A program made the translations under genes and the position numbers. Shown here piece by piece: positions 1,885 to 62,791 of a DNA stretch of 64,000 nucleotides. The stretch lies in contig NZ_CP101505.1 in assembly GCF_024362345.1 (NCBI RefSeq), positions 2,253,501-2,317,500 on the forward strand, given 5' to 3'. The stretch is from Polaribacter dokdonensis. Its GTDB lineage: Bacteria; Bacteroidota; Bacteroidia; Flavobacteriales; Flavobacteriaceae. The notes under the pieces were generated by a model that was given only the letters and a program-made list of their open reading frames with translations, was not told the origin of the DNA and made no database searches. Numbering within the stretch: the first letter of the stretch is position 1; each line of letters opens with the position of its first letter.

Positions 1885-3690
1885 ATGAACACTTCTTTAG
1901 AGCTTCAAATTAAAACACTGCCTTCTTCTCCAGGAGTTTATCAATATTTTGATAAAGAAGAAAAACTGATTTATGTTGGTAAAGCCAAAAATTTAAAGAA
2001 ACGAGTATCTTCTTATTTTACAAAAACACATGATAGTGGAAAAACTAGAGTTTTAGTAAAAAACATTAACACAGTAAAACACATTGTTGTTAATACAGAA
2101 ACAGACGCACTTTTATTAGAAAATAACCTTATAAAAAAATACAAACCTAAGTACAATGTACTTTTAAAGGATGATAAAACCTATCCTTGGATTTGTATCA
2201 AAAAAGAACGTTTTCCAAGAGTTTTTATGACAAGAAGAGTTATTAAAGATGGCTCTGAATATTTTGGGCCTTATACTTCTGTTAGAACCATTAAAGCACT
2301 TTTAGAGCTCATAAAAGAATTATATACACTTAGAACTTGTAAGTACGATTTAAGTAGAGAAAAAATAAATACAGGTAAATATAAAGTCTGTTTAGAATAT
2401 CATTTAGGAAATTGTTTAGGACCTTGTGAAGCTTTAGAAACTGAACAGCATTACAATAATTCCATAAAAGAAATTCGAAACATTATTAAAGGTAATTTTA
2501 AAGAAAGCCTGGAAAGACTTAATGCTTTAATGATGGGTTTTGCAGAAAAAATGGAGTTTGAAAAAGCGCAGAGAATTAAAGAAAAGTTAGACAGACTAAG
2601 CAACTATCAAGCAAAAAGCACTATTGTAAATCCTTCTATTAATAATGTAGATGTATTTTCTATTATATCAGATAAAACCCATGGCTATGCCAATTTTATA
2701 AAGATTTCTAATGGATCTATTATACAATCTCATACCACAGAAATAAAGAAAAAATTAGAAGAGTCAGACAAAGAATTACTAGAACTTTTCATTTTCGAAA
2801 TCAGACAAAGATACAATTCAACTTCACCAGAAATTTATGTTCCTTTTCAAGTAAATATTGGTGAAGATGTTAAGGTTACTATACCAAAAGTAGGTGATAA
2901 AAAGAGAATTGTAGAACTGTCTGAAAGAAATGCCAAATACTATAAGTTAGAGCAGTTAAAACAGATTAAAATTGTAGATCCTGATAGGCATGTGAAAAGA
3001 ATTATGGCTCAAATGAAGGCAGATTTGCGTTTAAAAGAAGAGCCAAGACATATTGAGTGTTTTGATAATTCTAATATACAAGGTACAAATCCTGTTGCTG
3101 CATGTGTGGTTTTTAGAGATGGAAAACCAAGTAAAAAAGAATACAGACATTACAATATAAAAACCGTTGTTGGGCCAGATGATTTTGCTTCTATGGAAGA
3201 GGTTGTTTTTAGAAGATATAAACGATTGCTTACTGAAGGCGAATCTTTACCACAACTAATTATTGTTGATGGTGGAAAAGGACAATTATCGTCAGCCGTA
3301 AAAAGTTTAGAAATTTTAGGTTTACGTGGTAAAATTGCAATTATTGGTATTGCCAAACGTTTAGAAGAAATCTATTATCCAGATGACCCGATACCTTTAT
3401 ATCTAGATAAAAAATCTGAAACCTTAAAGATTACTCAGTTTTTAAGAAATGAGGCTCATAGATTTGGTATTACATTTCATAGAAATAAAAGAAGTAAAAG
3501 TGCCATTCAAAGTGAGTTAGAACAAATACCAGATGTTGGCAAACAAACTATTACAACTTTATTACGTAAATTTAAATCCGCAAAACGAGTAAAAGAAGCT
3601 AATATAGAAGAGCTAAAAGCGGTTATTGGTAATGCAAGAGCATTAAAAGTCTATAATTTTTACCATTCAAAAAAAGACAATGAAAAATAA
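1885..3690 (+). CDS. uvrC: Excinuclease ABC subunit C
   Basis: Nuclease subunit of UvrABC nucleotide excision repair; it cuts the damaged DNA strand on both sides of the lesion bound by UvrB. About 601 residues, the normal length. Domains in order: N-terminal GIY-YIG nuclease (PGVYQYFD and IYVGKAKNLKKRV in the first 45 residues), a Cys-rich stretch with LGNCLGPC near residue 170-180, a UVR motif around 195-230, the RNase H-like endonuclease domain (HIECFDNSNIQGTNPVAACVVF, then IVDGGKGQL), and a C-terminal helix-hairpin-helix (IPDVGKQTITTLLRKF). ATG 1885 is preferred over an upstream in-frame TTG. The 3' end overlaps the next gene by 11 bp. Confidence 0.95.
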   Translation: MNTSLELQIKTLPSSPGVYQYFDKEEKLIYVGKAKNLKKRVSSYFTKTHDSGKTRVLVKNINTVKHIVVNTETDALLLENNLIKKYKPKYNVLLKDDKTYPWICIKKERFPRVFMTRRVIKDGSEYFGPYTSVRTIKALLELIKELYTLRTCKYDLSREKINTGKYKVCLEYHLGNCLGPCEALETEQHYNNSIKEIRNIIKGNFKESLERLNALMMGFAEKMEFEKAQRIKEKLDRLSNYQAKSTIVNPSINNVDVFSIISDKTHGYANFIKISNGSIIQSHTTEIKKKLEESDKELLELFIFEIRQRYNSTSPEIYVPFQVNIGEDVKVTIPKVGDKKRIVELSERNAKYYKLEQLKQIKIVDPDRHVKRIMAQMKADLRLKEEPRHIECFDNSNIQGTNPVAACVVFRDGKPSKKEYRHYNIKTVVGPDDFASMEEVVFRRYKRLLTEGESLPQLIIVDGGKGQLSSAVKSLEILGLRGKIAIIGIAKRLEEIYYPDDPIPLYLDKKSETLKITQFLRNEAHRFGITFHRNKRSKSAIQSELEQIPDVGKQTITTLLRKFKSAKRVKEANIEELKAVIGNARALKVYNFYHSKKDNEK

Positions 3691-5875
3691 ACTTATTTTA
3701 ATTTTATTACTCCCTTGGTTTGTTTTCGCTCAGCAAACACAACCTAAAGTAGGTTTAGTTTTGAGTGGTGGAGGTGCAAAAGGTTTTGCACATATTGGTG
3801 TTTTAAAAGAAATAGATAAAGCTGGTATTCAGTTAGATTATATTGCAGGCACAAGTATGGGTGCTATTATTGGTGGCTTATATGCTGCTGGTTATTCTGC
3901 AGTTCAAATAGAAGATATTGTTGTAAATACAGATTTTATGACATTACTAAGAGATCAAATTCCTAGAAGTTCAGAAACGTTCTTCGAAAAAGAATATGGT
4001 GAAAAAACGGTTATAACTCTGCCTGTAAATAATGGTAAAATTGGTTTTCCTAGAGGTATTTCTAAAGGACAAAATGTATTAAATCTACTCTTAGAATTAT
4101 TTGATTCTTTAGATGGCAACCAAGATTTTTCTAAACTAGCAACACCATTTTTTTGTATTGCAACAGATGTAGAAAATGGTAACCCTATAGTTTTAGAAAG
4201 CGGTTCATTACCTATTGCATTAAGAGCAAGTGGTTCTTTTCCTTCATTATTAAACCCAGTAGAAGTAGGTGATAAACTTTTAGTTGATGGTGGAATTGCC
4301 AATAACTTTCCTGTAAGTATTATGAAAGATAAAGGAATAGATATTGTAATTGGTGTAGATGTAGAAGGCAAACTCTTTCAGAAAGAAAAAATTAATTCTG
4401 TTGTTGCTTTGCTAAATCAAATTGTTAGCTATCAAATGTATAATAAGTCTGATGAAGAAATTAAAAAATTAGACGTTTACATACACCCAGAAATTTACGA
4501 TTTCTCTGTAGTAGATTTTGAAAGAAAAGAAGAAATTTTAGAAAAAGGAGAACTTGCAGCTAAAAAATATACTAAAGTTTTTGAAGAAATTGCAGCCAAA
4601 CAAACTATTAAAAAGAAACGTACAGATATAGAAATAAATACCAGTAAAATGTTAATATCAGATATTGCATTAACGGGTAATAATAATTATACAAGGTCTT
4701 ATGTTTTAGGAAAATTAAACATTTTAGAAGGTGATAGTTTGTCTAGACAAGAAGTTACAAAGAGAATTCATTTACTTTCTGCAACTAGAAATTATAATAA
4801 AATTGAATATAATTTTATTAAAAAAGTAGACGGTTCTTATCTCTTAAATTTTAATTTAACAGAATCAAATGAGAAAGCCAATTTAAAATTAGGCGTGCAT
4901 TATGATTTTTTATATAAATCTGGAGTGTTAGCTAACTACAATCACAAGCGTCTTTTTGGTAAGAATGATATGCTTGCTGTAGATTTTATTTTAGGCGATA
5001 ATTTAAGATACGATTTAAATTATTTTGTAGATAATGGATTTTATATTAGTTACGGAATTAGATCTAGATACGATCATTTTAGAGCAAACTCGAAGTTTAA
5101 TTTAGTAATAACTGATGAATTTGATATAAATAATATAAATATTAAATATACAGATATAACCAATCAATTATACTTACAAACCACCTTTGGTAGAAAGTTT
5201 GCAATTGGTTTAGGTTTAGAACATAAGTATATAAAAATAAGTACAGAAACTATTGTTGTGAATAGTGGAGAAACTATTTTAGATAACAGTGAGTATCTTA
5301 ATGCATTTGGTTATATTAAGTTAGATACTTATGATCAAAAATATTTTGTTACTAAAGGATATTTTGCAGATTTAAGAGCAAAATGGTTTATCAATTCAAC
5401 AAACCATAATCAAAATTTTAAACGTTTTCTACAAACTAGAGGAACTTTAGGTTTTGCAACTACTTTTTTCGATAAACTTACATTTCAATTAACCAATGAA
5501 GCTGGTTTTACTTTTGATAACCCAGATTCTAGCATTTTTGATTTTTATCTTGGTGGATATAACCAAAACTATATCAACACTTTTACTCGATTTTATGGTT
5601 ATGATTTTGCAGAGCTTTCAGATCTTTCTTACGTAAAATCAGAACTAAATATTAGATATCGTTTTGCAGACAGACATTATGCAAATTTTATTGCCAATTA
5701 TGCAAGGTTAGATACCAATGTGTTTAAAGACATCGATTTGTTTACAGATATCAAATCTGGTTATGCAGTAGGGTATAGCTATAACAGTATTATTGGACCA
5801 ATTGAATTAAAATACGCTTGGTCTCCAGATACCAAACAGAATTTTTGGTTGTTTAATCTAGGTTTTTGGTTCTAA
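3680..5875 (+). CDS. Patatin-like phospholipase with outer-membrane barrel domain (type Vd autotransporter-like)
   Basis: A 731-residue exported protein with a signal peptide (about 1-17, ending VFAQ). The patatin domain follows: oxyanion loop SGGGAKGFAH near residue 30, nucleophile motif GTSMG near 58, and the catalytic Asp in VDGGIANNFPV near 200. About residues 310-380 look like a POTRA domain and about 400-731 like a BamA/D15-type beta-barrel ending in FWF. This is the arrangement of PlpD-type (type Vd) secreted lipases, so the lipase may be displayed at the cell surface. The gene starts inside the last 11 bp of uvrC and is probably translationally coupled to it. The substrate cannot be read from the sequence. 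Confidence 0.85.
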   Translation: MKNKLILILLLPWFVFAQQTQPKVGLVLSGGGAKGFAHIGVLKEIDKAGIQLDYIAGTSMGAIIGGLYAAGYSAVQIEDIVVNTDFMTLLRDQIPRSSETFFEKEYGEKTVITLPVNNGKIGFPRGISKGQNVLNLLLELFDSLDGNQDFSKLATPFFCIATDVENGNPIVLESGSLPIALRASGSFPSLLNPVEVGDKLLVDGGIANNFPVSIMKDKGIDIVIGVDVEGKLFQKEKINSVVALLNQIVSYQMYNKSDEEIKKLDVYIHPEIYDFSVVDFERKEEILEKGELAAKKYTKVFEEIAAKQTIKKKRTDIEINTSKMLISDIALTGNNNYTRSYVLGKLNILEGDSLSRQEVTKRIHLLSATRNYNKIEYNFIKKVDGSYLLNFNLTESNEKANLKLGVHYDFLYKSGVLANYNHKRLFGKNDMLAVDFILGDNLRYDLNYFVDNGFYISYGIRSRYDHFRANSKFNLVITDEFDINNINIKYTDITNQLYLQTTFGRKFAIGLGLEHKYIKISTETIVVNSGETILDNSEYLNAFGYIKLDTYDQKYFVTKGYFADLRAKWFINSTNHNQNFKRFLQTRGTLGFATTFFDKLTFQLTNEAGFTFDNPDSSIFDFYLGGYNQNYINTFTRFYGYDFAELSDLSYVKSELNIRYRFADRHYANFIANYARLDTNVFKDIDLFTDIKSGYAVGYSYNSIIGPIELKYAWSPDTKQNFWLFNLGFWF

Positions 5876-55566: not shown

Positions 55567-56874
55567 ATGAGCACAAATACAGCATACGTACCTTTTAAAG
55601 TTAAAGATATTTCTTTAGCTGATTGGGGTAGAAAAGAAATAGAATTGGCAGAAGCAGAAATGCCAGGTTTAATGAGTTTAAGAGAAGAGTATGGAGATTC
55701 TCAGCCCTTAAAAGGAGCTAGAATTGCAGGTTGTTTACATATGACAATTCAAACTGCTGTTTTAATAGAAACTCTACAAGCTTTGGGTGCAGAAGTTACT
55801 TGGAGTTCTTGTAATATTTTCTCTACACAAGATCAAGCTGCAGCTGCAATTGCTGCAACAGGTACACCAGTTTATGCTTGGAAAGGAATGAACGAAGAAG
55901 AATTTGATTGGTGTATAGAACAAACATTATTTTTTGGTGAAGATAAAAAGCCACTAAATATGATATTAGATGATGGAGGAGATTTAACCAACATGGTTTT
56001 AGATAGATATCCAGAGTTAGCAGAAGGTATTAATGGTTTATCAGAAGAAACTACTACAGGAGTTCATAGACTTTATGAAAGAGTAAAAAACGGAACTTTA
56101 CCAATGCCAGCTATCAACATTAACGATTCTGTAACCAAGTCTAAATTTGATAACAAATATGGTTGTAAAGAATCTGCAGTAGATGCAATTCGTAGAGCAA
56201 CAGATATTATGTTAGCAGGTAAAAGAGTTGTAGTTTGTGGTTATGGAGATGTTGGTAAAGGTACAGCTGCTTCTTTTAAAGGTGCTGGTTCTATTGTAAC
56301 TGTAACAGAGATTGACCCAATTTGTGCTTTACAAGCAGCAATGGATGGATTTGAAGTTAAGAAATTAGAAACTGTTGTTGCAAATGCAGATATTGTAATT
56401 ACAACTACTGGTAATAAAGGTATTGTAAGAGGTGAGCATTTTGAAGCAATGAAAGACAAAGTTATTGTATGTAACATTGGTCATTTTGATAATGAAATTG
56501 ATGTACCTTACTTGAACAACAATAGCGAAAAAGTAGAAATTAAGCCACAGGTTGATAAATACAACATTAATGGTAAAGATATTATTCTTCTTGCAGAAGG
56601 ACGTTTAGTAAACTTAGGTTGTGCAACTGGGCATCCAAGTTTTGTAATGTCTAATTCATTTACAAATCAAACTTTAGCGCAAATAGAACTTTGGAACAAT
56701 GCAGATGCTTATGAAAATAAAGTATACATGTTACCAAAACACTTAGATGAAAAAGTAGCAAAATTACACTTAGCTAAAATTGGTGTTGAGTTAACAGAGT
56801 TAAGCAAAGATCAAGCAGATTATATTGGTGTTACTCAAGAAGGGCCATATAAACCTGAACATTACAGATACTAA
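55567..56874 (+). CDS. ahcY: Adenosylhomocysteinase
   Basis: Cytoplasmic enzyme that splits S-adenosylhomocysteine into adenosine and homocysteine, clearing the product of methyltransferases. 435 residues, full length: [65 protein letters not shown] loop [28 protein letters not shown]-like ITTTGNKGI, and the C-terminal [10 protein letters not shown]. Its last 194 bp are repeated at 59722-59915 with two silent changes and a different stop codon. The functional copy's 3' end is thus one of two alleles in the chromosome. Confidence 0.97.
56681..56874. repeat. Direct repeat, left copy (3' end of ahcY)
   Basis: The 194 bp from within codon 372 to the ahcY stop recur at 59722-59915, exactly 3,041 bp to the right. 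Only three differences are visible: AAC/AAT, GAG/GAA (both silent) and TAA/TAG at the stop. The repeats bracket the leucine-rich-repeat gene. Confidence 0.95.
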
Positions 56875-56894
56875 AAAGATTCTTCTTTAAAAAT

Positions 56895-56924
56895 AAAAAA
56901 CCTCTCATATTGAGAGGTTTTTTT
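56895..56924. terminator. Bidirectional terminator between ahcY and the LRR gene
   Basis: CCTCTCA (56901-56907), loop TAT, TGAGAGG (56911-56917), with A and T runs on the sides. It lies in the inserted segment, not in the original ahcY 3' flank. Confidence 0.85.
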
Positions 56925-59691
56925 ATTCTTTAATAAAACGCATCGATTTTTTCAATTTATCAGCTTTAAAGTTAATTAAGTAAACTCCCTTGCTTAAATT
57001 GTTTACGGGAATTCTAGTTTTGTTGGTGTTTTTTGAAAAGTTTATTTTTTTTAATAAGCTTCCTTTTAAATCATAAATTTCAATAATATTAAAAGGTTTA
57101 TTACTGTCAACGTTTATAAAATCTGTTGTTGGTTTTGGAAACAACTTTATGCTAGCATTAAAATAGTATTCATCAATTTTTGCAGGGGATTCAATTATTG
57201 TTTTAGCTGTGTTGGTTACAATTTCTGGATTATAATCAAAATAAATTTCAGCAAAATTTTCAAGAGTATCTCCTACATTTAGATTTGGTAACGTTTTAAT
57301 TTTAAAAGCAACATATCCATCATTATTTTCATCGTAAAAAGGTAAATTTATACCTTCAAAAATAAATTCAACTTTATTTATATTTTGTATTCTTGTTTTT
57401 AAGGCATGGCTATAATCATAAACATCTAAAGTAGCAATGTCAAATTTTTCAGTATCAATAACATCTTTAACTACTACATTAATAGCACTTGCTGTGCCTA
57501 AATTTTCGAAACGAATTAAGTAATGTATATATTCGCCAATAATTTCTGGTGTTGCAAAATCGCCTTGTAAACAAGTCTTATCATTTGGGTCGTATGAATT
57601 TACAACCTCCTGATTTAAGTTAAATAAATTATTAATTTCTACTTCTTCATTTTCTGTTGGGTTTATTGCAGCTTGATACGTTAGAATATCTCCACTGTTT
57701 AACGAAGGTGTTTCTGTTGGAGAATTTAAATTCATTGTAAAAAGAATTTCTCTTTTTTCTGTAGGTTCTAAATCTTGATAGTCCCAATTCAATTGCCCTA
57801 TGTTTTGCGAAGTCATGCTCATGTTCGATGAAACAAAATCGAGCACGTTATCATTATAGGTAAGGTTAATATTTCCTGAAATTGGTGTAGTCCCAACATT
57901 TTTGTAGATTATTTTATAGTCTGCATCAAAACCTGGTCTTGCTTCATCAATAGGTATTATGTTAATTTCTACATCATTAAAATCTCCTTTAGAATTAATA
58001 CAAATATTTTGCACATGAGGAGATGTAGTATCTGGAAAATTAACAGTGAATGAATCTATAGAAGATGAATAATAGTTAGGATTAAGTAATTGCGGTTCAA
58101 CTGTGTATTCTCCTTCTGGCAAGTGAACTTCATAAGTGCCATCTGCATTAACAGAATAAAAATCACTATCTCCAGTTTTGTAAGTGATTTTTAATTTTAA
58201 ATCACTAAAATTTATACTGTTTGTATCACAACTATTGCCAATATTATTTATTTTAACATTACCTTTTAAGGTATAATATTCTCCACCAGGAGTAAAACTA
58301 CAGTAAGGATTAACTGTTATACCTGAACTTTTAAACATGCTAATTTCTCTTGAGAAATTGTCTGTACAGACATATTTTAAAGTTTGTTCTCTTCCATCAT
58401 AATTCCACCATCCTAATTTACTATATGTTTGGCCATAGTTATTCTGTTCAACCTCCTGAAATCCATTTTTTATGAATAATGTTTCTAAAAGATTATTATG
58501 TATTTCTGTAAATCGTAAATTGTAATTTTTTGATAAATCTAATGTTTTCAATAGGTTATCAGTACAATAAAATAGAACGACTTCTTTTAGTTCGCTTACA
58601 TTTAATTCTGTTAATTTATTAACACTACAATTTAAATAAGATACTTCTTTCGAGTTAGATAAATCTATTGTAGAAATTTCATTATTATTAACCAATAAAA
58701 CAGCAAGTTTAGGATTTTGAGTAAGATCTATCTGTGTTAAGTTATTATAGGAAGTATCTAAACGTTCTAGACTGCCTAACCCAGTCAAGTTTATTTCAGT
58801 AATCTTATTTGATTTAAAGTTTAAGTTTGATATTTGTTTTGAATTAGATAAATCTAATGTAGAAATTTGATTGTTATTAATATATAAAACAGCAAGTTTA
58901 GGATTTTGAGTCAAATCTATTTCTGTCAAATTATTACTACTAAGAATTAATTCATTTAGATTAGGCATATTACTAACATCAAAGTCGGTAAGATTTGCAC
59001 CAGAATAATTTAATTTTGTTAGACCTATAACATTTGGTATTTCTATTATAGTATCAAAGTTATTATAACCAATATCTAATATTTCTATATCTACTAAATT
59101 TGAAATCTCTAATTTCTCAAGATTGTTAAAATTACAATTAAGACTAATAATTTTAGAGTTGTTTGTTAAGTCTAATTCTATAAGTTCGTTATTTGAACAA
59201 CCTAGTATCTCCAAATTTGTAAGATTAGTTAAATCTAATTCTATAAGTTCGTTAAGTGAACAATCTAGTATTTCTAAATTTGTAAGATTAGTTAAATCTA
59301 AATGAGTTAGTTTGTTTTCGCTACAATAAAGTGTTTTTAAATTATAACTTTCTGGCAATTTCAGTTCTTTCAGTTCACTGGCATAATTAGTATCCAAATA
59401 TTCCAAATTTACTAATTCAGTAAGGTCTAAACTTTCAATATAATTTGAGTGAATGATTAATTTTGTAAGATTTTTAAAGAAAGAAATACCTACTAAACTT
59501 GTAATATCTTTGAAATAAAAATCTAGTTCTGTTATTGCTATTGCCTCAGAAACTTCTATCTCTCCATCATTATTGGTGTCTACACCAATATCTAGTAACG
59601 CAGTTTTAAAATTTGCATCTGGTATATCTATTACTTGACTTTGTATAGTAATAGAAAAAAATGCTATTAATAAAGGGAGTATCTTTTTCAT
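56923..59691 (-). CDS. Secreted leucine-rich-repeat protein with type IX sorting domain
   Basis: A 922-residue exported protein: signal peptide about 1-18 (ending IQSQ); about eighteen leucine-rich repeats of about 21 residues (roughly 30-400, e.g. LTNLEILDCSLNELIELDLT, LTKLNYSGANLTDFDVSNMP); a Cys-containing linker; a beta-sandwich region about 465-620; a DUF7619/DUF11-like domain about 690-830 (YDPNDKTCLQGDFATPEIIGEYIHYLIRFENLG); and a C-terminal T9SS type A sorting domain about 845-922 (ending SMRFIKE). So it is probably secreted by the type IX system and attached to the surface. It is the only gene between the two copies of the ahcY 3' end, suggesting recent arrival. Confidence 0.88.
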   Translation of the reverse strand: MKKILPLLIAFFSITIQSQVIDIPDANFKTALLDIGVDTNNDGEIEVSEAIAITELDFYFKDITSLVGISFFKNLTKLIIHSNYIESLDLTELVNLEYLDTNYASELKELKLPESYNLKTLYCSENKLTHLDLTNLTNLEILDCSLNELIELDLTNLTNLEILGCSNNELIELDLTNNSKIISLNCNFNNLEKLEISNLVDIEILDIGYNNFDTIIEIPNVIGLTKLNYSGANLTDFDVSNMPNLNELILSSNNLTEIDLTQNPKLAVLYINNNQISTLDLSNSKQISNLNFKSNKITEINLTGLGSLERLDTSYNNLTQIDLTQNPKLAVLLVNNNEISTIDLSNSKEVSYLNCSVNKLTELNVSELKEVVLFYCTDNLLKTLDLSKNYNLRFTEIHNNLLETLFIKNGFQEVEQNNYGQTYSKLGWWNYDGREQTLKYVCTDNFSREISMFKSSGITVNPYCSFTPGGEYYTLKGNVKINNIGNSCDTNSINFSDLKLKITYKTGDSDFYSVNADGTYEVHLPEGEYTVEPQLLNPNYYSSSIDSFTVNFPDTTSPHVQNICINSKGDFNDVEINIIPIDEARPGFDADYKIIYKNVGTTPISGNINLTYNDNVLDFVSSNMSMTSQNIGQLNWDYQDLEPTEKREILFTMNLNSPTETPSLNSGDILTYQAAINPTENEEVEINNLFNLNQEVVNSYDPNDKTCLQGDFATPEIIGEYIHYLIRFENLGTASAINVVVKDVIDTEKFDIATLDVYDYSHALKTRIQNINKVEFIFEGINLPFYDENNDGYVAFKIKTLPNLNVGDTLENFAEIYFDYNPEIVTNTAKTIIESPAKIDEYYFNASIKLFPKPTTDFINVDSNKPFNIIEIYDLKGSLLKKINFSKNTNKTRIPVNNLSKGVYLINFKADKLKKSMRFIKE

Positions 59692-59718
59692 AAGTAAATA
59701 TAAAAATTATTTTTTACT

Positions 59719-59726
59719 CAAAAATA
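59719..59726 (-). promoter_or_regulatory. -7 promoter element of the LRR gene, built over the insertion junction
   Basis: On the minus strand this reads TATTTTTG (TAnnTTTG), 28 bp upstream of the LRR start. Its TA end lies inside the ahcY-derived repeat (starting at 59722) and its TTTG end in unique sequence. So the promoter exists only because of the fusion. The -33 position has no TTG. Confidence 0.45.
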
Positions 59727-59915
59727 GAACTTTGGAATAATGCAGATGCTTATGAAAATAAAGTATACATGTTACCAAAACACTTAGATGAAAAAGTAGC
59801 AAAATTACACTTAGCTAAAATTGGTGTTGAGTTAACAGAATTAAGCAAAGATCAAGCAGATTATATTGGTGTTACTCAAGAAGGGCCATATAAACCTGAA
59901 CATTACAGATACTAG
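59722..59915 (+). pseudogene. Displaced 3' fragment of ahcY (right direct repeat)
   Basis: Colinear with the last 194 bp of ahcY, including the final [10 protein letters not shown] codons, with two silent differences and TAG in place of TAA. It has no start and no upstream part, so it cannot make the enzyme. Its own terminator follows at 59950. The silent-only differences indicate that the two alleles diverged while both were under selection, so the copy came from another lineage rather than from simple local duplication. Confidence 0.9.
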
Positions 59916-59949
59916 TCTACATATAATACTAGGAAATTAATAAAATTAA

Positions 59950-59981
59950 GGTTCTTTCAAGAAATTGAGAGAACCTTTTTT
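59950..59981 (+). terminator. Terminator after the ahcY fragment (probably the original ahcY terminator)
   Basis: An 11-bp stem GGTTCTTTCAA (59950-59960) / TTGAGAGAACC (59965-59975), loop GAAA, followed by a T run. The remaining 59982-60124 has no gene and no clear -7 element; it is AT-rich leader of the next gene. Confidence 0.8.
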
Positions 59982-60124: not shown

Positions 60125-61291
60125 ATGAAATCCGATAATAATAAAGAGTATTATCACATGAGTAAAAAGAAATACAGTATAAAGAAATTTATAAACGATG
60201 TTCATCTTTGGTTAGGTTTAGCAAGTGGAATTATTTTGTTTCTAGTATGTTTAAGTGGAACAGTTTTAGCTTTTGAGCATGAGATTAAAGATGCTTTTTC
60301 AGCAAAGTTTCAGATTCAGAAAAAAAATCAGAAATTAGATGTAGATGATTTAGTATCTGTGTTAACAGAAAATAATCAGGGAGTAGTTTCAAGTGTAAAA
60401 ATACCTGCTGATGATTTAAAACCTTATAGTTTTCGAGTTAAAAAAGATCCTAAACAAAGAAGAGGTTTTACAGTTTTAGTAAATCCTTATACAGCAGAAA
60501 TTAAAAAAGTAGAAAAATCTAGCGCAGATGCTTTTTTAACTACTATGTTTAGATTACACAGATGGTTGTTGTTAGATACCAAAATAGGCAGGCCTATTGT
60601 TGGTGTAGCTACTATTATCTTCTTCTTTTTGGCAATTTCTGGTATTGTTTTATGGTTTCCTAAAAAGCTAAAGTGGAAAAACGTAAAACAAGGTTTAAAA
60701 ATTAAAACCAAAGCAAAATGGAAAAGAGTTAATTACGATTTACACAATACTCTAGGTTTTTATGCAAGTATATTTTTAATTATAATGTGTATTACAGGTT
60801 TGTGTTGGTCATTTACAAGCTACAGAACTGGTTTGGGTAATTTAATTGGCGCTAAAATATTTAATAGAAGTGCACCAAAGTTTAATGCAAAGAATCTTAA
60901 AGAAAGTAAAATTATAACATATACTCAAGCTTTGTCAATTGCAAACAAAACTTTAAACTATGAAGGTGATGTTTCTATAGGTTTCCCAACAAAAAAGAAT
61001 AATTATTTTAGCATTAGTAAAACAAACAAAAATAATTGGTCTCCTGTAACTTCAGATAGATTATACTTAAGTCTTTCTGGTGATATTTTAGAAGTACAAT
61101 ACTTTAAAGACAAACCATTAAACGTACAATTTGCATCGCTTATTAAACCAATTCATACAGGAGAAATTTTCGGAACTTTTTCTAAAATAATTTACTTTTT
61201 AGCCTGTTTAATTGCCACAAGTTTACCAGTTACAGGTACTATTATTTGGCTGAATAAATTAAAGAAAAAGAAGAAGAAAAAACGAGTATAG
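60125..61291 (+). CDS. PepSY-associated transmembrane protein
   Basis: About 388 residues from ATG 60125; ATG 60158 (MSKKKYSIKKF) is an equally good start and matches typical family N-termini. Four helices: about 35-55 (WLGLASGIILFLVCLSGTVLAF), 155-180, 210-230 and 355-378. The NDVHLWLGL opening, the RLHRWLLLD motif near 140, and the NYDLHNTLGFYAS segment are those of the PepSY-TM (iron-regulated membrane protein) family, often linked to siderophore use or ferric reduction. The SLC13 transporter follows 69 bp later. Confidence 0.82.
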   Translation: MKSDNNKEYYHMSKKKYSIKKFINDVHLWLGLASGIILFLVCLSGTVLAFEHEIKDAFSAKFQIQKKNQKLDVDDLVSVLTENNQGVVSSVKIPADDLKPYSFRVKKDPKQRRGFTVLVNPYTAEIKKVEKSSADAFLTTMFRLHRWLLLDTKIGRPIVGVATIIFFFLAISGIVLWFPKKLKWKNVKQGLKIKTKAKWKRVNYDLHNTLGFYASIFLIIMCITGLCWSFTSYRTGLGNLIGAKIFNRSAPKFNAKNLKESKIITYTQALSIANKTLNYEGDVSIGFPTKKNNYFSISKTNKNNWSPVTSDRLYLSLSGDILEVQYFKDKPLNVQFASLIKPIHTGEIFGTFSKIIYFLACLIATSLPVTGTIIWLNKLKKKKKKKRV

Positions 61292-61360: not shown

Positions 61361-62791
61361 ATGAAAATTACACAAAAAATAGGTTTATTTCTAGGGCCTA
61401 TTTTGTTTTTGCTACTGCAAATTTTGCCAATAACTATGGTTTCAGCCAAAGCAGATGCTGTTATTGCAGTTGCAATTTGGATGGTTATTTGGTGGATTAC
61501 AGAGAGTGTTCATATTGCAGTAACAGCCTTACTACCTTTAATTCTTTTCCCCTTGCTAAAAGTAATGCCAATTGCAGATGTTGGCGCCAATTATGGTAGT
61601 CCAATAATATTTCTATTTTTTGGAGGTTTTGTTTTGGCTTTGGCTTTAGAGAAAGTTAATCTACATAAACGAATTGCACTGAACATTGTAAAATTAACAG
61701 GTACAACATCAGAAAAAGTAGTGTTGGGTTTTATGCTAGCAACTGCATTTATGAGTATGTGGATTAGTAATACAGCATCTACTGTAGTAATGTTACCCAT
61801 AGCAATTTCTGTAATTCGTTTATTAATAAATGATGAAGATGGTTTTACCAAAGGCGATAAAAACTTTGCTTTAAGTATTATGCTTGGTATTGCATTTGCT
61901 GCAAATGCAGGTGGCATTGCCACTGTTATTGGTACTCCTCCAAATTCGGTTTTAATTGGGTTGTTAGAAAATCAGTACAACATTCAAATTTCATTTATAA
62001 GATGGATGAGTTTTGGCTTACCCTTTTCTATAATTATGATAGCTGCTGTGTATGTTGTTTTGGTAAAATGGATGTTTCCCTGTAAAGAAATCAAGTTTAC
62101 AGCATCAGCCAATGTTATTGATGATGAAATTAAAAAATTAGGTAAAATTTCATCCGAAGAAAAAAGAGTGCTAACCATATTTGGAATAACCGTTTTTCTA
62201 TGGATTACAAGAACAATTATCAATGCAATATTTCCTGAATTAAAACTATCAGATACCATTATTAGTTTAATAGCAGCTGTTGCTTTATTCGCAATTCCTA
62301 TGAACTTTAAAAGAGGTAATTTTGTTTTAGAATGGAATGATACCAGCAAATTAGCTTGGGGAATTCTATTACTTTTTGGAGGTGGTTTAGCATTAGCAAA
62401 AGGTATGGCTGCTAGTGGTTTAGTAGCTGTTATTACAGATGCAATTGCAGCTGGTAATTTTAATATTTTACTAACAGCCTCTCTTTTAATACTACTAATG
62501 CTGTTTATGACAGAACTTATGAGTAATGTAGCTCTTGTTGCAGTTTTAGCGCCTGTGGTTGCTGGTATTGCAATAGGTTTAAATATACCAATGTTAAATT
62601 TATTAATACCTGTAACAATGGCTAGTAGTTGTGCATTTATGTTACCAATGGCTACACCACCAAATGCAATTGTATTTGCAAGTGGTTATGTTAAAGTAAA
62701 GCAAATGGTAAAAGCAGGAGTTGTACTAAACACAATTGCTGTATTGTTACTCATATTTTACTATCAGTTTATAATTCCTTTATTCTTTTAA
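61361..62791 (+). CDS. SLC13/DASS-family sodium:dicarboxylate (or sulfate) symporter
   Basis: A 476-residue inner-membrane protein with about twelve helices. The two hairpin SNT motifs of the DASS family are present: FMSMWISNTASTVVMLPIAISV near residues 130-152 and TELMSNVALVAVLAPVVAGIA near 385-405. It also has NAGGIATVIGTPPNSVLIGL near 183-203 and MATPPNAIVFASGYVK near 430. Likely substrates are C4-dicarboxylates such as succinate. It is probably co-transcribed with the PepSY gene. A 155-bp gap leads to the lyase gene. Confidence 0.9.
   Translation: MKITQKIGLFLGPILFLLLQILPITMVSAKADAVIAVAIWMVIWWITESVHIAVTALLPLILFPLLKVMPIADVGANYGSPIIFLFFGGFVLALALEKVNLHKRIALNIVKLTGTTSEKVVLGFMLATAFMSMWISNTASTVVMLPIAISVIRLLINDEDGFTKGDKNFALSIMLGIAFAANAGGIATVIGTPPNSVLIGLLENQYNIQISFIRWMSFGLPFSIIMIAAVYVVLVKWMFPCKEIKFTASANVIDDEIKKLGKISSEEKRVLTIFGITVFLWITRTIINAIFPELKLSDTIISLIAAVALFAIPMNFKRGNFVLEWNDTSKLAWGILLLFGGGLALAKGMAASGLVAVITDAIAAGNFNILLTASLLILLMLFMTELMSNVALVAVLAPVVAGIAIGLNIPMLNLLIPVTMASSCAFMLPMATPPNAIVFASGYVKVKQMVKAGVVLNTIAVLLLIFYYQFIIPLFF

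What the first reader, a model, noticed from the sequence alone, without database searches (positions are those of the whole stretch)
56681..59915. A single-gene insertion flanked by two copies of the ahcY 3' end
The last 194 bp of ahcY are present twice as direct repeats, 3,041 bp apart, and the only gene between them is a secreted leucine-rich-repeat protein. The copies differ at three bases: two silent codon changes and TAA versus TAG. This is the pattern of an element that lands at the 3' end of a housekeeping gene and supplies a replacement end, as integrating islands do at tRNA genes, but here the cargo is one surface protein and no integrase is seen. The right copy keeps its own terminator. 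It may be a route by which Flavobacteriaceae swap surface proteins.
Basis: partly seen in the sequence, partly recalled or inferred. Interest (0 to 1): 0.82.

Follow-up and report, generated by a model that had tools for sequence, protein, structure and literature searches.

The report
Gene inserted with duplicated ahcY end
A single surface-protein gene has been added right behind a housekeeping enzyme gene by an event that also copied the end of that enzyme gene, leaving it whole; a few related bacteria show the same kind of insertion with other genes, so it looks like an enzyme-free way of gaining genes, of a type already described for restriction genes in another bacterium.

Summary
The last 194 bp of ahcY occur twice (56681-56874, 59722-59915; two silent changes plus TAA/TAG). 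The only sizeable gene between is a 922-aa leucine-rich-repeat protein with a type IX secretion tail. The nearest relative by ahcY (G056) is an empty site, and its downstream sequence matches what follows the RIGHT copy; so the left copy's downstream plus the LRR gene are the addition. Other cases at the same gene end carry other cargo: G002 (455-bp repeat, one T9SS type A gene), G054 (decayed copy, one T9SS type B gene), G364 (100-bp repeat, three genes) and, by inference across two contigs, G082 (polysaccharide-type gene). The pattern also occurs at comM in G034 and G085. The duplicated part of ahcY differs in length (about 59 to 289 bp), no integrase or transposase was found, and 4 of 155 genus genomes carry an extra ahcY end. 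Best reading: additive 'insertion with long target duplication', probably one-sided homologous plus one-sided illegitimate recombination of incoming DNA. Known kind (R-M genes of Helicobacter pylori); cargo and host group new as far as I searched.

The parts
55567..56874 (+). ahcY (S-adenosylhomocysteine hydrolase), 435 aa, intact, TAA stop
56681..56874 (+). Left copy of the ahcY 3' end, part of the intact gene; followed by non-native sequence
   Evidence: the sequence after it does not match the empty site (local score 50; best of 200 shuffles of the right-hand sequence 76)
56895..56923 (.). Terminator hairpin between convergent ahcY and the LRR gene (AAAAAACCTCTC...GAGAGGTTTTTT); similar hairpins follow ahcY in G098, G034, G057, G082, G024 and, imperfectly, G364
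   Evidence: similar hairpins also lie elsewhere in this genome
56923..59691 (-). Cargo: 922-aa leucine-rich-repeat protein with DUF7619 and a T9SS type A sorting domain
   Evidence: 35 of 166 genus genomes (own included) hold a relative at E <= 1e-30 (5 candidates scored per genome where printed) and the nearest outside this genome is 45% identical
59692..59721 (.). Short spacer between the LRR start codon and the right copy; a TAnnTTTG-like box on the minus strand (59719-59726) spans the junction
   Evidence: read from the sequence; consensus recalled, function not tested
59722..59915 (+). Right copy: ahcY 3'-end fragment without the rest of the gene, TAG stop, joined to the native downstream region
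   Evidence: downstream matches G056 (local score 155; best of 200 shuffles 76)
59948..59977 (+). Native ahcY terminator (AAGGTTCTTTC...GAGAGAACCTT), similar to the one after ahcY in G056
60125..61291 (+). Native downstream neighbour: PepSY-type membrane protein (name from general knowledge)
   Evidence: directly downstream of ahcY (about 245 bp) in G056
61361..62791 (+). Native downstream neighbour: DASS-type transporter (name from general knowledge)
   Evidence: present downstream of ahcY in 18 of 77 flanks and 4 of 18 further ones

Best explanation
An additive insertion with long target duplication and no enzyme of its own. Incoming DNA carrying the LRR gene was joined to the chromosome at the ahcY 3' end, so that the last 194 bp of ahcY now lie on both sides. 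The left copy completes the working ahcY; the right copy is a leftover that keeps the native terminator and neighbours. Shown: the duplication, the empty site, the polarity (right side native), other cargo with other repeat lengths at the same gene end, and no integrase or transposase gene between the copies. Inferred: the route, most likely uptake of DNA that also carried an ahcY end, integrated by homologous recombination within ahcY on one side and by illegitimate joining just upstream of the LRR gene on the other (homology-facilitated illegitimate recombination), or the equivalent single crossover of a circularised fragment. Ends of conserved genes are tolerant sites because the duplicated end leaves the gene whole. 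The repeats could let the insert be lost again by RecA recombination (not shown).
For: Repeat and single cargo gene. Empty site G056 with matching native downstream. Second single-gene case, G002: 455-bp repeat, 94%, T9SS type A protein of 1588 aa, then DASS. Third, G054: decayed ahcY tail (E 5.4e-4 in 809,809 bases of 94 flanks; best reversed-tail hit 0.26) behind a single T9SS type B gene. G364: 100-bp repeat, three genes. G082: 59-bp tail plus the same terminator before DASS on another contig. Same pattern at comM: G034 (322 bp, 94.7%, both convergent genes kept whole; G019 shows the uninterrupted stretch at 75%) and G085 (103 bp, 97%). Variable duplication length argues against a site-specific enzyme. 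In the window and G364 the repeat stops at the stop codon or one base past it, as expected if two alleles with unrelated downstream DNA recombined within the gene. No relative covering 80% of the cargo in the plasmid and phage records and none confirmed in the viral contigs. The mechanism type exists: one-sided homologous integration of linear DNA (PMC3240628, abstract start in a listing); a pneumococcal additive insertion giving a very small tandem duplication (PMC3784515, passages).
Against: The two copies in the window (99%) and in G002 (94.7%) are each other's nearest relatives among 96 distinct ahcY sequences; other species reach at most 91% and 89%. (G364's copies, 93% alike, also are, but its own genus is not in that set, so this says little.) A donor from another species is therefore not seen: the donor was very close, or the copies were homogenised, or the duplicate is self-made. 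No donor locus with ahcY directly followed by this LRR gene was found; in G100 the nearest LRR relative lies further on, after DASS. Competence of this strain is not shown (ComEC family present, but the same search finds it in 10 of 14 control genomes, E. coli among them). In G002, G082 and G034 the repeat runs past the stop codon, which a plain target duplication explains as well. Most flanks differ in what follows ahcY without any visible ahcY-end repeat, so most gene turnover here left no such trace or used another route.
Confidence: 0.6

Rival explanations
1. True target duplication of the recipient's own ahcY end: unrelated DNA bridges two staggered positions (for example on two sister chromosomes), so the stretch between them is kept twice. 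No donor ahcY is involved.
For: Copies are mutual nearest relatives in the window and G002; repeats run past the stop codon in G002, G082 and G034.
Against: In the window and G364 the repeat ends at the stop codon or one base past it, an unlikely spot for a random break; the left copy is followed by an ahcY-style terminator also seen behind ahcY in other genomes; in G085 the leftover copy is nearer to other species (97.1% to G077) than the working copy is (94.2%), a hint for two alleles over 103 bp only.
Confidence: 0.25
2. Integrase-driven small island whose attachment site is the ahcY 3' end, now without its integrase.
For: Same anatomy as islands at gene 3' ends: replacement end on one side, leftover end on the other.
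Against: No integrase between the repeats or among the cargo proteins typed; the 5' limit of the duplication differs in each measurable case; the same event type occurs at the 5' end of comM in G085.
Confidence: 0.05
3. Old tandem duplication of ahcY and its neighbourhood, with later deletion of most of the second copy.
For: G002 and G034 repeats include downstream DNA.
Against: In the window the left copy is followed at once by non-native DNA; it needs several steps and recurs with different cargo; no full second ahcY downstream of the first was seen in the flanks examined.
Confidence: 0.07
4. Assembly artefact.
For: No reads available to me.
Against: One-contig genome; copies differ at three bases and have different flanks; the repeat is short; independent genomes show the same event type.
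Confidence: 0.03

Closest known systems
Insertion with long target duplication (Nobusato et al. 2000, not read; described in PMC1643837, passages; mentioned in PMC3031569 and PMC3154945, passages)
   Same: Comparison of two genomes shows a gene insertion together with a long duplication of the target
   Different: Described as frequently associated with restriction-modification genes in Helicobacter pylori; here T9SS surface-protein and other genes in a Flavobacteriaceae genus, repeatedly at the ahcY 3' end
Homology-facilitated illegitimate recombination (PMC3240628 abstract start in a listing; proposed for Vibrio effector modules in PMC5361080, passages)
   Same: One homologous anchor, one illegitimate junction, gain of a gene without an integrase, leftovers of old sequence downstream
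   Different: Not demonstrated here; the Vibrio model displaces the old effector, while here no loss is seen and the end of the anchor gene is duplicated
Pneumococcal additive insertion with a very small tandem duplication (clone R3022, PMC3784515, passages)
   Same: Transformation product with extra DNA next to a very small tandem duplication
   Different: Laboratory selection with a marked homologous donor
Islands and prophages at tRNA or protein-gene 3' ends (recalled, not looked up)
   Same: Replacement gene end supplied by the element, leftover end at the far side
   Different: Integrase and fixed core site are missing here
Minimal mobile elements of Neisseria (recalled; the term was only counted in a listing)
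   Same: Different genes exchanged between the same two conserved neighbours without an integrase
   Different: No direct duplication is part of that description as I recall it

Membership tests
Insertion with long target duplication | Long direct duplication of target sequence at both sides of the insert | tested here: met
   194 bp in the window; 455, 100, 322 and 103 bp in G002, G364, G034 and G085
Insertion with long target duplication | Related genome with a single target copy and no insert | tested here: met
   G056 for the window; for G034 an uninterrupted stretch in G019 at 75%; not tested separately for the other cases
Insertion with long target duplication | No known transposase or integrase in the insert | tested here: met
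   Window insert: one gene of real size, LRR/T9SS. Main cargo of G002, G054 and G364 typed. The small genes in G034 and G085 were not run against a library, and the G082 insert was seen only in part
Insertion with long target duplication | Cargo is a restriction-modification system (a frequent association in the original report, not a definition) | tested here: not met
Homology-facilitated illegitimate recombination | One homologous anchor and one illegitimate junction | tested here: inconclusive
   Anatomy fits; no clear overlap beyond a short A-run at the window junction (by eye); donor unknown
Homology-facilitated illegitimate recombination | Uptake of linear DNA by transformation or conjugation | not testable with these tools
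   ComEC family present, not specific
Integrase-driven genomic island at a gene 3' end | Integrase gene in the element | tested here: not met
Integrase-driven genomic island at a gene 3' end | Constant core at the 5' edge of the duplication | tested here: not met
   Duplicated ahcY part is 194, 289, 99 and about 59 bp long, stop codon included
Insertion sequence or composite transposon | Terminal inverted repeats, transposase, short target duplication of fixed length | tested here: not met
   No inverted pair of at least 20 nt flanks the insert among the 25 of 27 shown (shorter ends not searched); no transposase; duplication is long and variable

The most novel reading that the evidence does not exclude
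The 3' ends of conserved housekeeping genes, ahcY above all, act as recurrent, enzyme-free landing pads in this genus. Gene-sized units that carry a copy of the gene end move in and out by the host's own recombination. The duplicated end is both the anchor for entry and the switch for loss, so single secreted-protein genes are swapped without harming the anchor gene.
Probability: 0.15. Interest if true: 0.75.

Novelty: new variant of a known kind. Interest (0 to 1): 0.5.

Why it matters
Genomes of this group differ in secreted and surface proteins, and how single genes arrive is often unmarked. A repeat-marked insertion that keeps its anchor gene intact leaves a readable trace, with a rough age scale from the divergence of the two copies (99% in the window, 94% in G002, nearly erased in G054). 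If general, it offers a simple genome-wide scan for recent one-gene gains and a test of whether natural transformation drives them.

Tried and rejected
Intergenic repeats downstream of ahcY in G012 (115 bp), G085 (45 bp), G025 (34 bp), G100 (27 bp) and G028 (117 bp) look on reading like dispersed repeats, terminators or tandem paralogues and were not counted as cases.

Genus tail scan: 9 of 155 positive genomes show two tail matches. G015, G018 and G146 are weak hits inside unrelated long ORFs on other contigs. G057 has two longer copies on different contigs (4% contamination). G104 has its ahcY split over two contig ends, unresolved. That leaves G000, G002, G054 and G082. Family scan: 4 of 376 positive genomes with two matches; G368 and G505 are second, apparently full-length genes, leaving G000 and G364.

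Control gene end (ribonuclease G-like, name from general knowledge): 159 of 166 genus genomes positive, 4 with more than one match. G119's first two matches overlap and look like one frame-split gene, its third is weak and on another contig; G084's second is at a contig start; G027 has a weak 37% hit with three stops 8.9 kb away; G144's is weak and on another contig. None is a clear neighbouring fragment. The difference from ahcY (4 of 155) is suggestive only.

Promoter scan: 23 sites against a shuffle mean of 24.8, no enrichment. Donor search in named genomes: 8 loci, 34-42% identical. In the protein database the best hit after the entry marked as the window's own is 83% identical, on a 7,574-base metagenome contig whose context I could not read (metagenome scans capped at 0). 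No structure prediction was run: the fold does not bear on the question.

Literature: (ahcY, duplicat, 3 end, insertion, Flavobacteri) returned 0 papers; (Flavobacteri, type IX secretion, horizontal gene transfer, direct repeat, insertion) returned 4, none of which by title or abstract start describes this; (Polaribacter, natural transformation) returned 6, none of which by title describes it. The library lacks most subscription papers, so 'not in print' is not claimed. Nobusato 2000 and Furuta 2010 were not read.

Full report
What is there. The window (G000:C1:2253501-2317500, one contig of 3,087,453 bases) holds ahcY at 55567-56874 (+). Its last 194 bp recur at 59722-59915 on the same strand, 3,041 bp further on. 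The differences are two silent changes and the last stop-codon base. Between the copies lies one sizeable gene, 56923-59691 (-), 922 aa, with LRR_4, DUF7619 and a T9SS type A tail.

Chance and artefact. In 372,820 bp of this genome (the window plus 20 stretches around T9SS genes, chosen from the 39 TIGR04183 hits), with pairs inside one ORF left out, only this pair and one 44-bp intergenic pair pass the repeat criteria. Different copies, different flanks and independent cases elsewhere speak against misassembly; reads were not available.

Polarity and empty site. G056 (91% over the 575-bp ahcY query) has ahcY, about 245 bp, then the PepSY-type gene and DASS. Its downstream sequence aligns with the right-copy downstream (local score 155; best of 200 shuffles of that sequence 76) but not with the left-copy downstream (50). 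So the right side is native, and the left copy's downstream plus the LRR gene are the addition. G098, the second-best ahcY match, has DASS 71 bp after ahcY and no insert.

Other cases at ahcY. I examined 95 downstream flanks of ahcY (77, 18 more; one from another genus; G104's has no downstream sequence). G002 has a 455-bp repeat (94%) that includes the last 289 bp of ahcY and runs about 164 bp past its stop, around one 1588-aa T9SS type A protein, then DASS. G054 has one 800-aa T9SS type B gene (minus strand, as in the window) and behind it a decayed ahcY tail of 32 residues that ends exactly at the C-terminus. In the pooled flanks (94 flanks, 809,809 bases) this tail has E 5.4e-4; the best reversed-tail hit has 0.26. 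G364, another genus, has a 100-bp repeat (93%) around an AraC-type regulator and two beta-propeller proteins. G082 has a 59-bp ahcY tail with ahcY's own terminator directly before DASS on contig C84, while its intact ahcY on C33 is followed by a Wzz/tyrosine-kinase-type gene; that one insert joins the two contigs is inferred.

How common. In the genus scan, 155 of 166 genomes show the tail; nine have two matches and, after checking, four a true extra partial copy. In the family scan 376 of 397 are positive; G000 and G364 have one. A control gene end gave 159 of 166 positive and no clear neighbouring fragment. This hints at a hotspot but does not prove it. Against a large role: DASS, the native neighbour in G056, was found in only 18 of the 77 flanks and 4 of the 18 further ones, so the region turns over widely, mostly without a visible ahcY-end repeat.

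Not only ahcY. A repeat scan of 127 loci (1,573,831 bases; ahcY-region, LRR or T9SS loci, so not a random sample; at least 50 bp and 80%) printed 22 pairs. Five are gene ends with a displaced fragment: ahcY in the window, G002 and G364, and comM (yifB type, name from general knowledge) in G034 and G085; the scan does not detect the G054 and G082 cases, and the other 17 pairs are intergenic or within paralogues. In G034 the repeat (322 bp, 94.7%) covers the ends of two convergent genes, each of which stays whole on its own side; G019 has the same stretch uninterrupted at 75%. In G085 the 5' end of comM is duplicated (103 bp, 97%) around two small genes. This matches 'insertion with long target duplication' as a general event type.

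Mechanism. A site-specific recombinase is unlikely: none is encoded between the copies, and the duplicated ahcY part differs in length from case to case. In the window and in G364 the repeat stops at the stop codon or one base past it, as expected if recombination occurred between two ahcY alleles whose downstream regions are unrelated. The left terminator is of a kind found directly behind ahcY in G098 and, less exactly in one case, five other genomes, six of the 95 printed or tested, although similar hairpins occur elsewhere in this genome. Against a foreign donor, the two copies are mutual nearest relatives in the window and G002 among 96 distinct sequences; G364 cannot be judged because its genus is not in that set. 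Hence a very close donor, later homogenisation, or a self-derived duplication remain open. I favour one-sided homologous plus one-sided illegitimate recombination of incoming DNA, with self-duplication as the main rival.

Cargo. Of 166 genus genomes, 35 (own included) hold a relative of the LRR protein at E <= 1e-30; the best outside this genome, 45% identical, lies in G100 downstream of ahcY, after DASS. In the plasmid records 18 and in the phage records 15 show partial matches, none covering 80% of the query; the viral-contig scan confirmed no relative. Three of the five ahcY inserts are a single T9SS gene; the number is small and the cases were found after the fact.

Known or new. The CGAT paper (PMC1643837, passages) describes the same pattern in Helicobacter pylori, citing Nobusato et al. 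2000, which I did not read; PMC3031569 and PMC3154945 mention it (passages). One-sided homologous integration is described in PMC3240628 (abstract start in a listing) and proposed for Vibrio in PMC5361080 (passages); PMC3784515 reports a small additive duplication after transformation (passages). Searches showed no listing of this for Flavobacteriaceae or T9SS genes. I therefore file it as a new variant of a known kind: same event type, new cargo class, new host group as far as I searched, and a recurrent target gene.

Noticed in passing
L165 (G034) 2277-2598 and 3944-4265: 322-bp direct repeat (94.7%) covering the convergent ends of comM and a UmuC-like gene (names from general knowledge), flanking about 1.35 kb of small genes; both genes remain whole.
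   Followed up: partly
L186 (G085) 2388-2490 and 3531-3633: 103-bp direct repeat (97%) of the comM 5' end flanking two small genes: the same event type at a gene start.
   Followed up: partly
ahcY downstream region in several relatives (e.g. L075, L079, L080, L081): A comM/yifB-like gene, recalled as linked to natural transformation, lies a few kb downstream of ahcY.
   Followed up: no
L077 (G012) 2648-2762 and 3521-3635: 115-bp intergenic repeat (95.7%) flanking a small two-gene unit with a PIN/VapC-like protein (by eye), just downstream of ahcY.
   Followed up: partly
window 59719-59726 (-): A TAnnTTTG-like box, the recalled Bacteroidetes promoter element, spans the junction upstream of the LRR gene and may have been formed or kept by the join.
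   Followed up: no
G000:C1:1129257-1141622: Three T9SS tails with starts 6,069 bp apart in long open frames, suggesting tandem copies of a large secreted protein gene.
   Followed up: no
L134 (G100): A 664-aa gene between ahcY and DASS, and the closest LRR relative directly after DASS: the neighbourhood as a whole seems to gain genes.
   Followed up: partly
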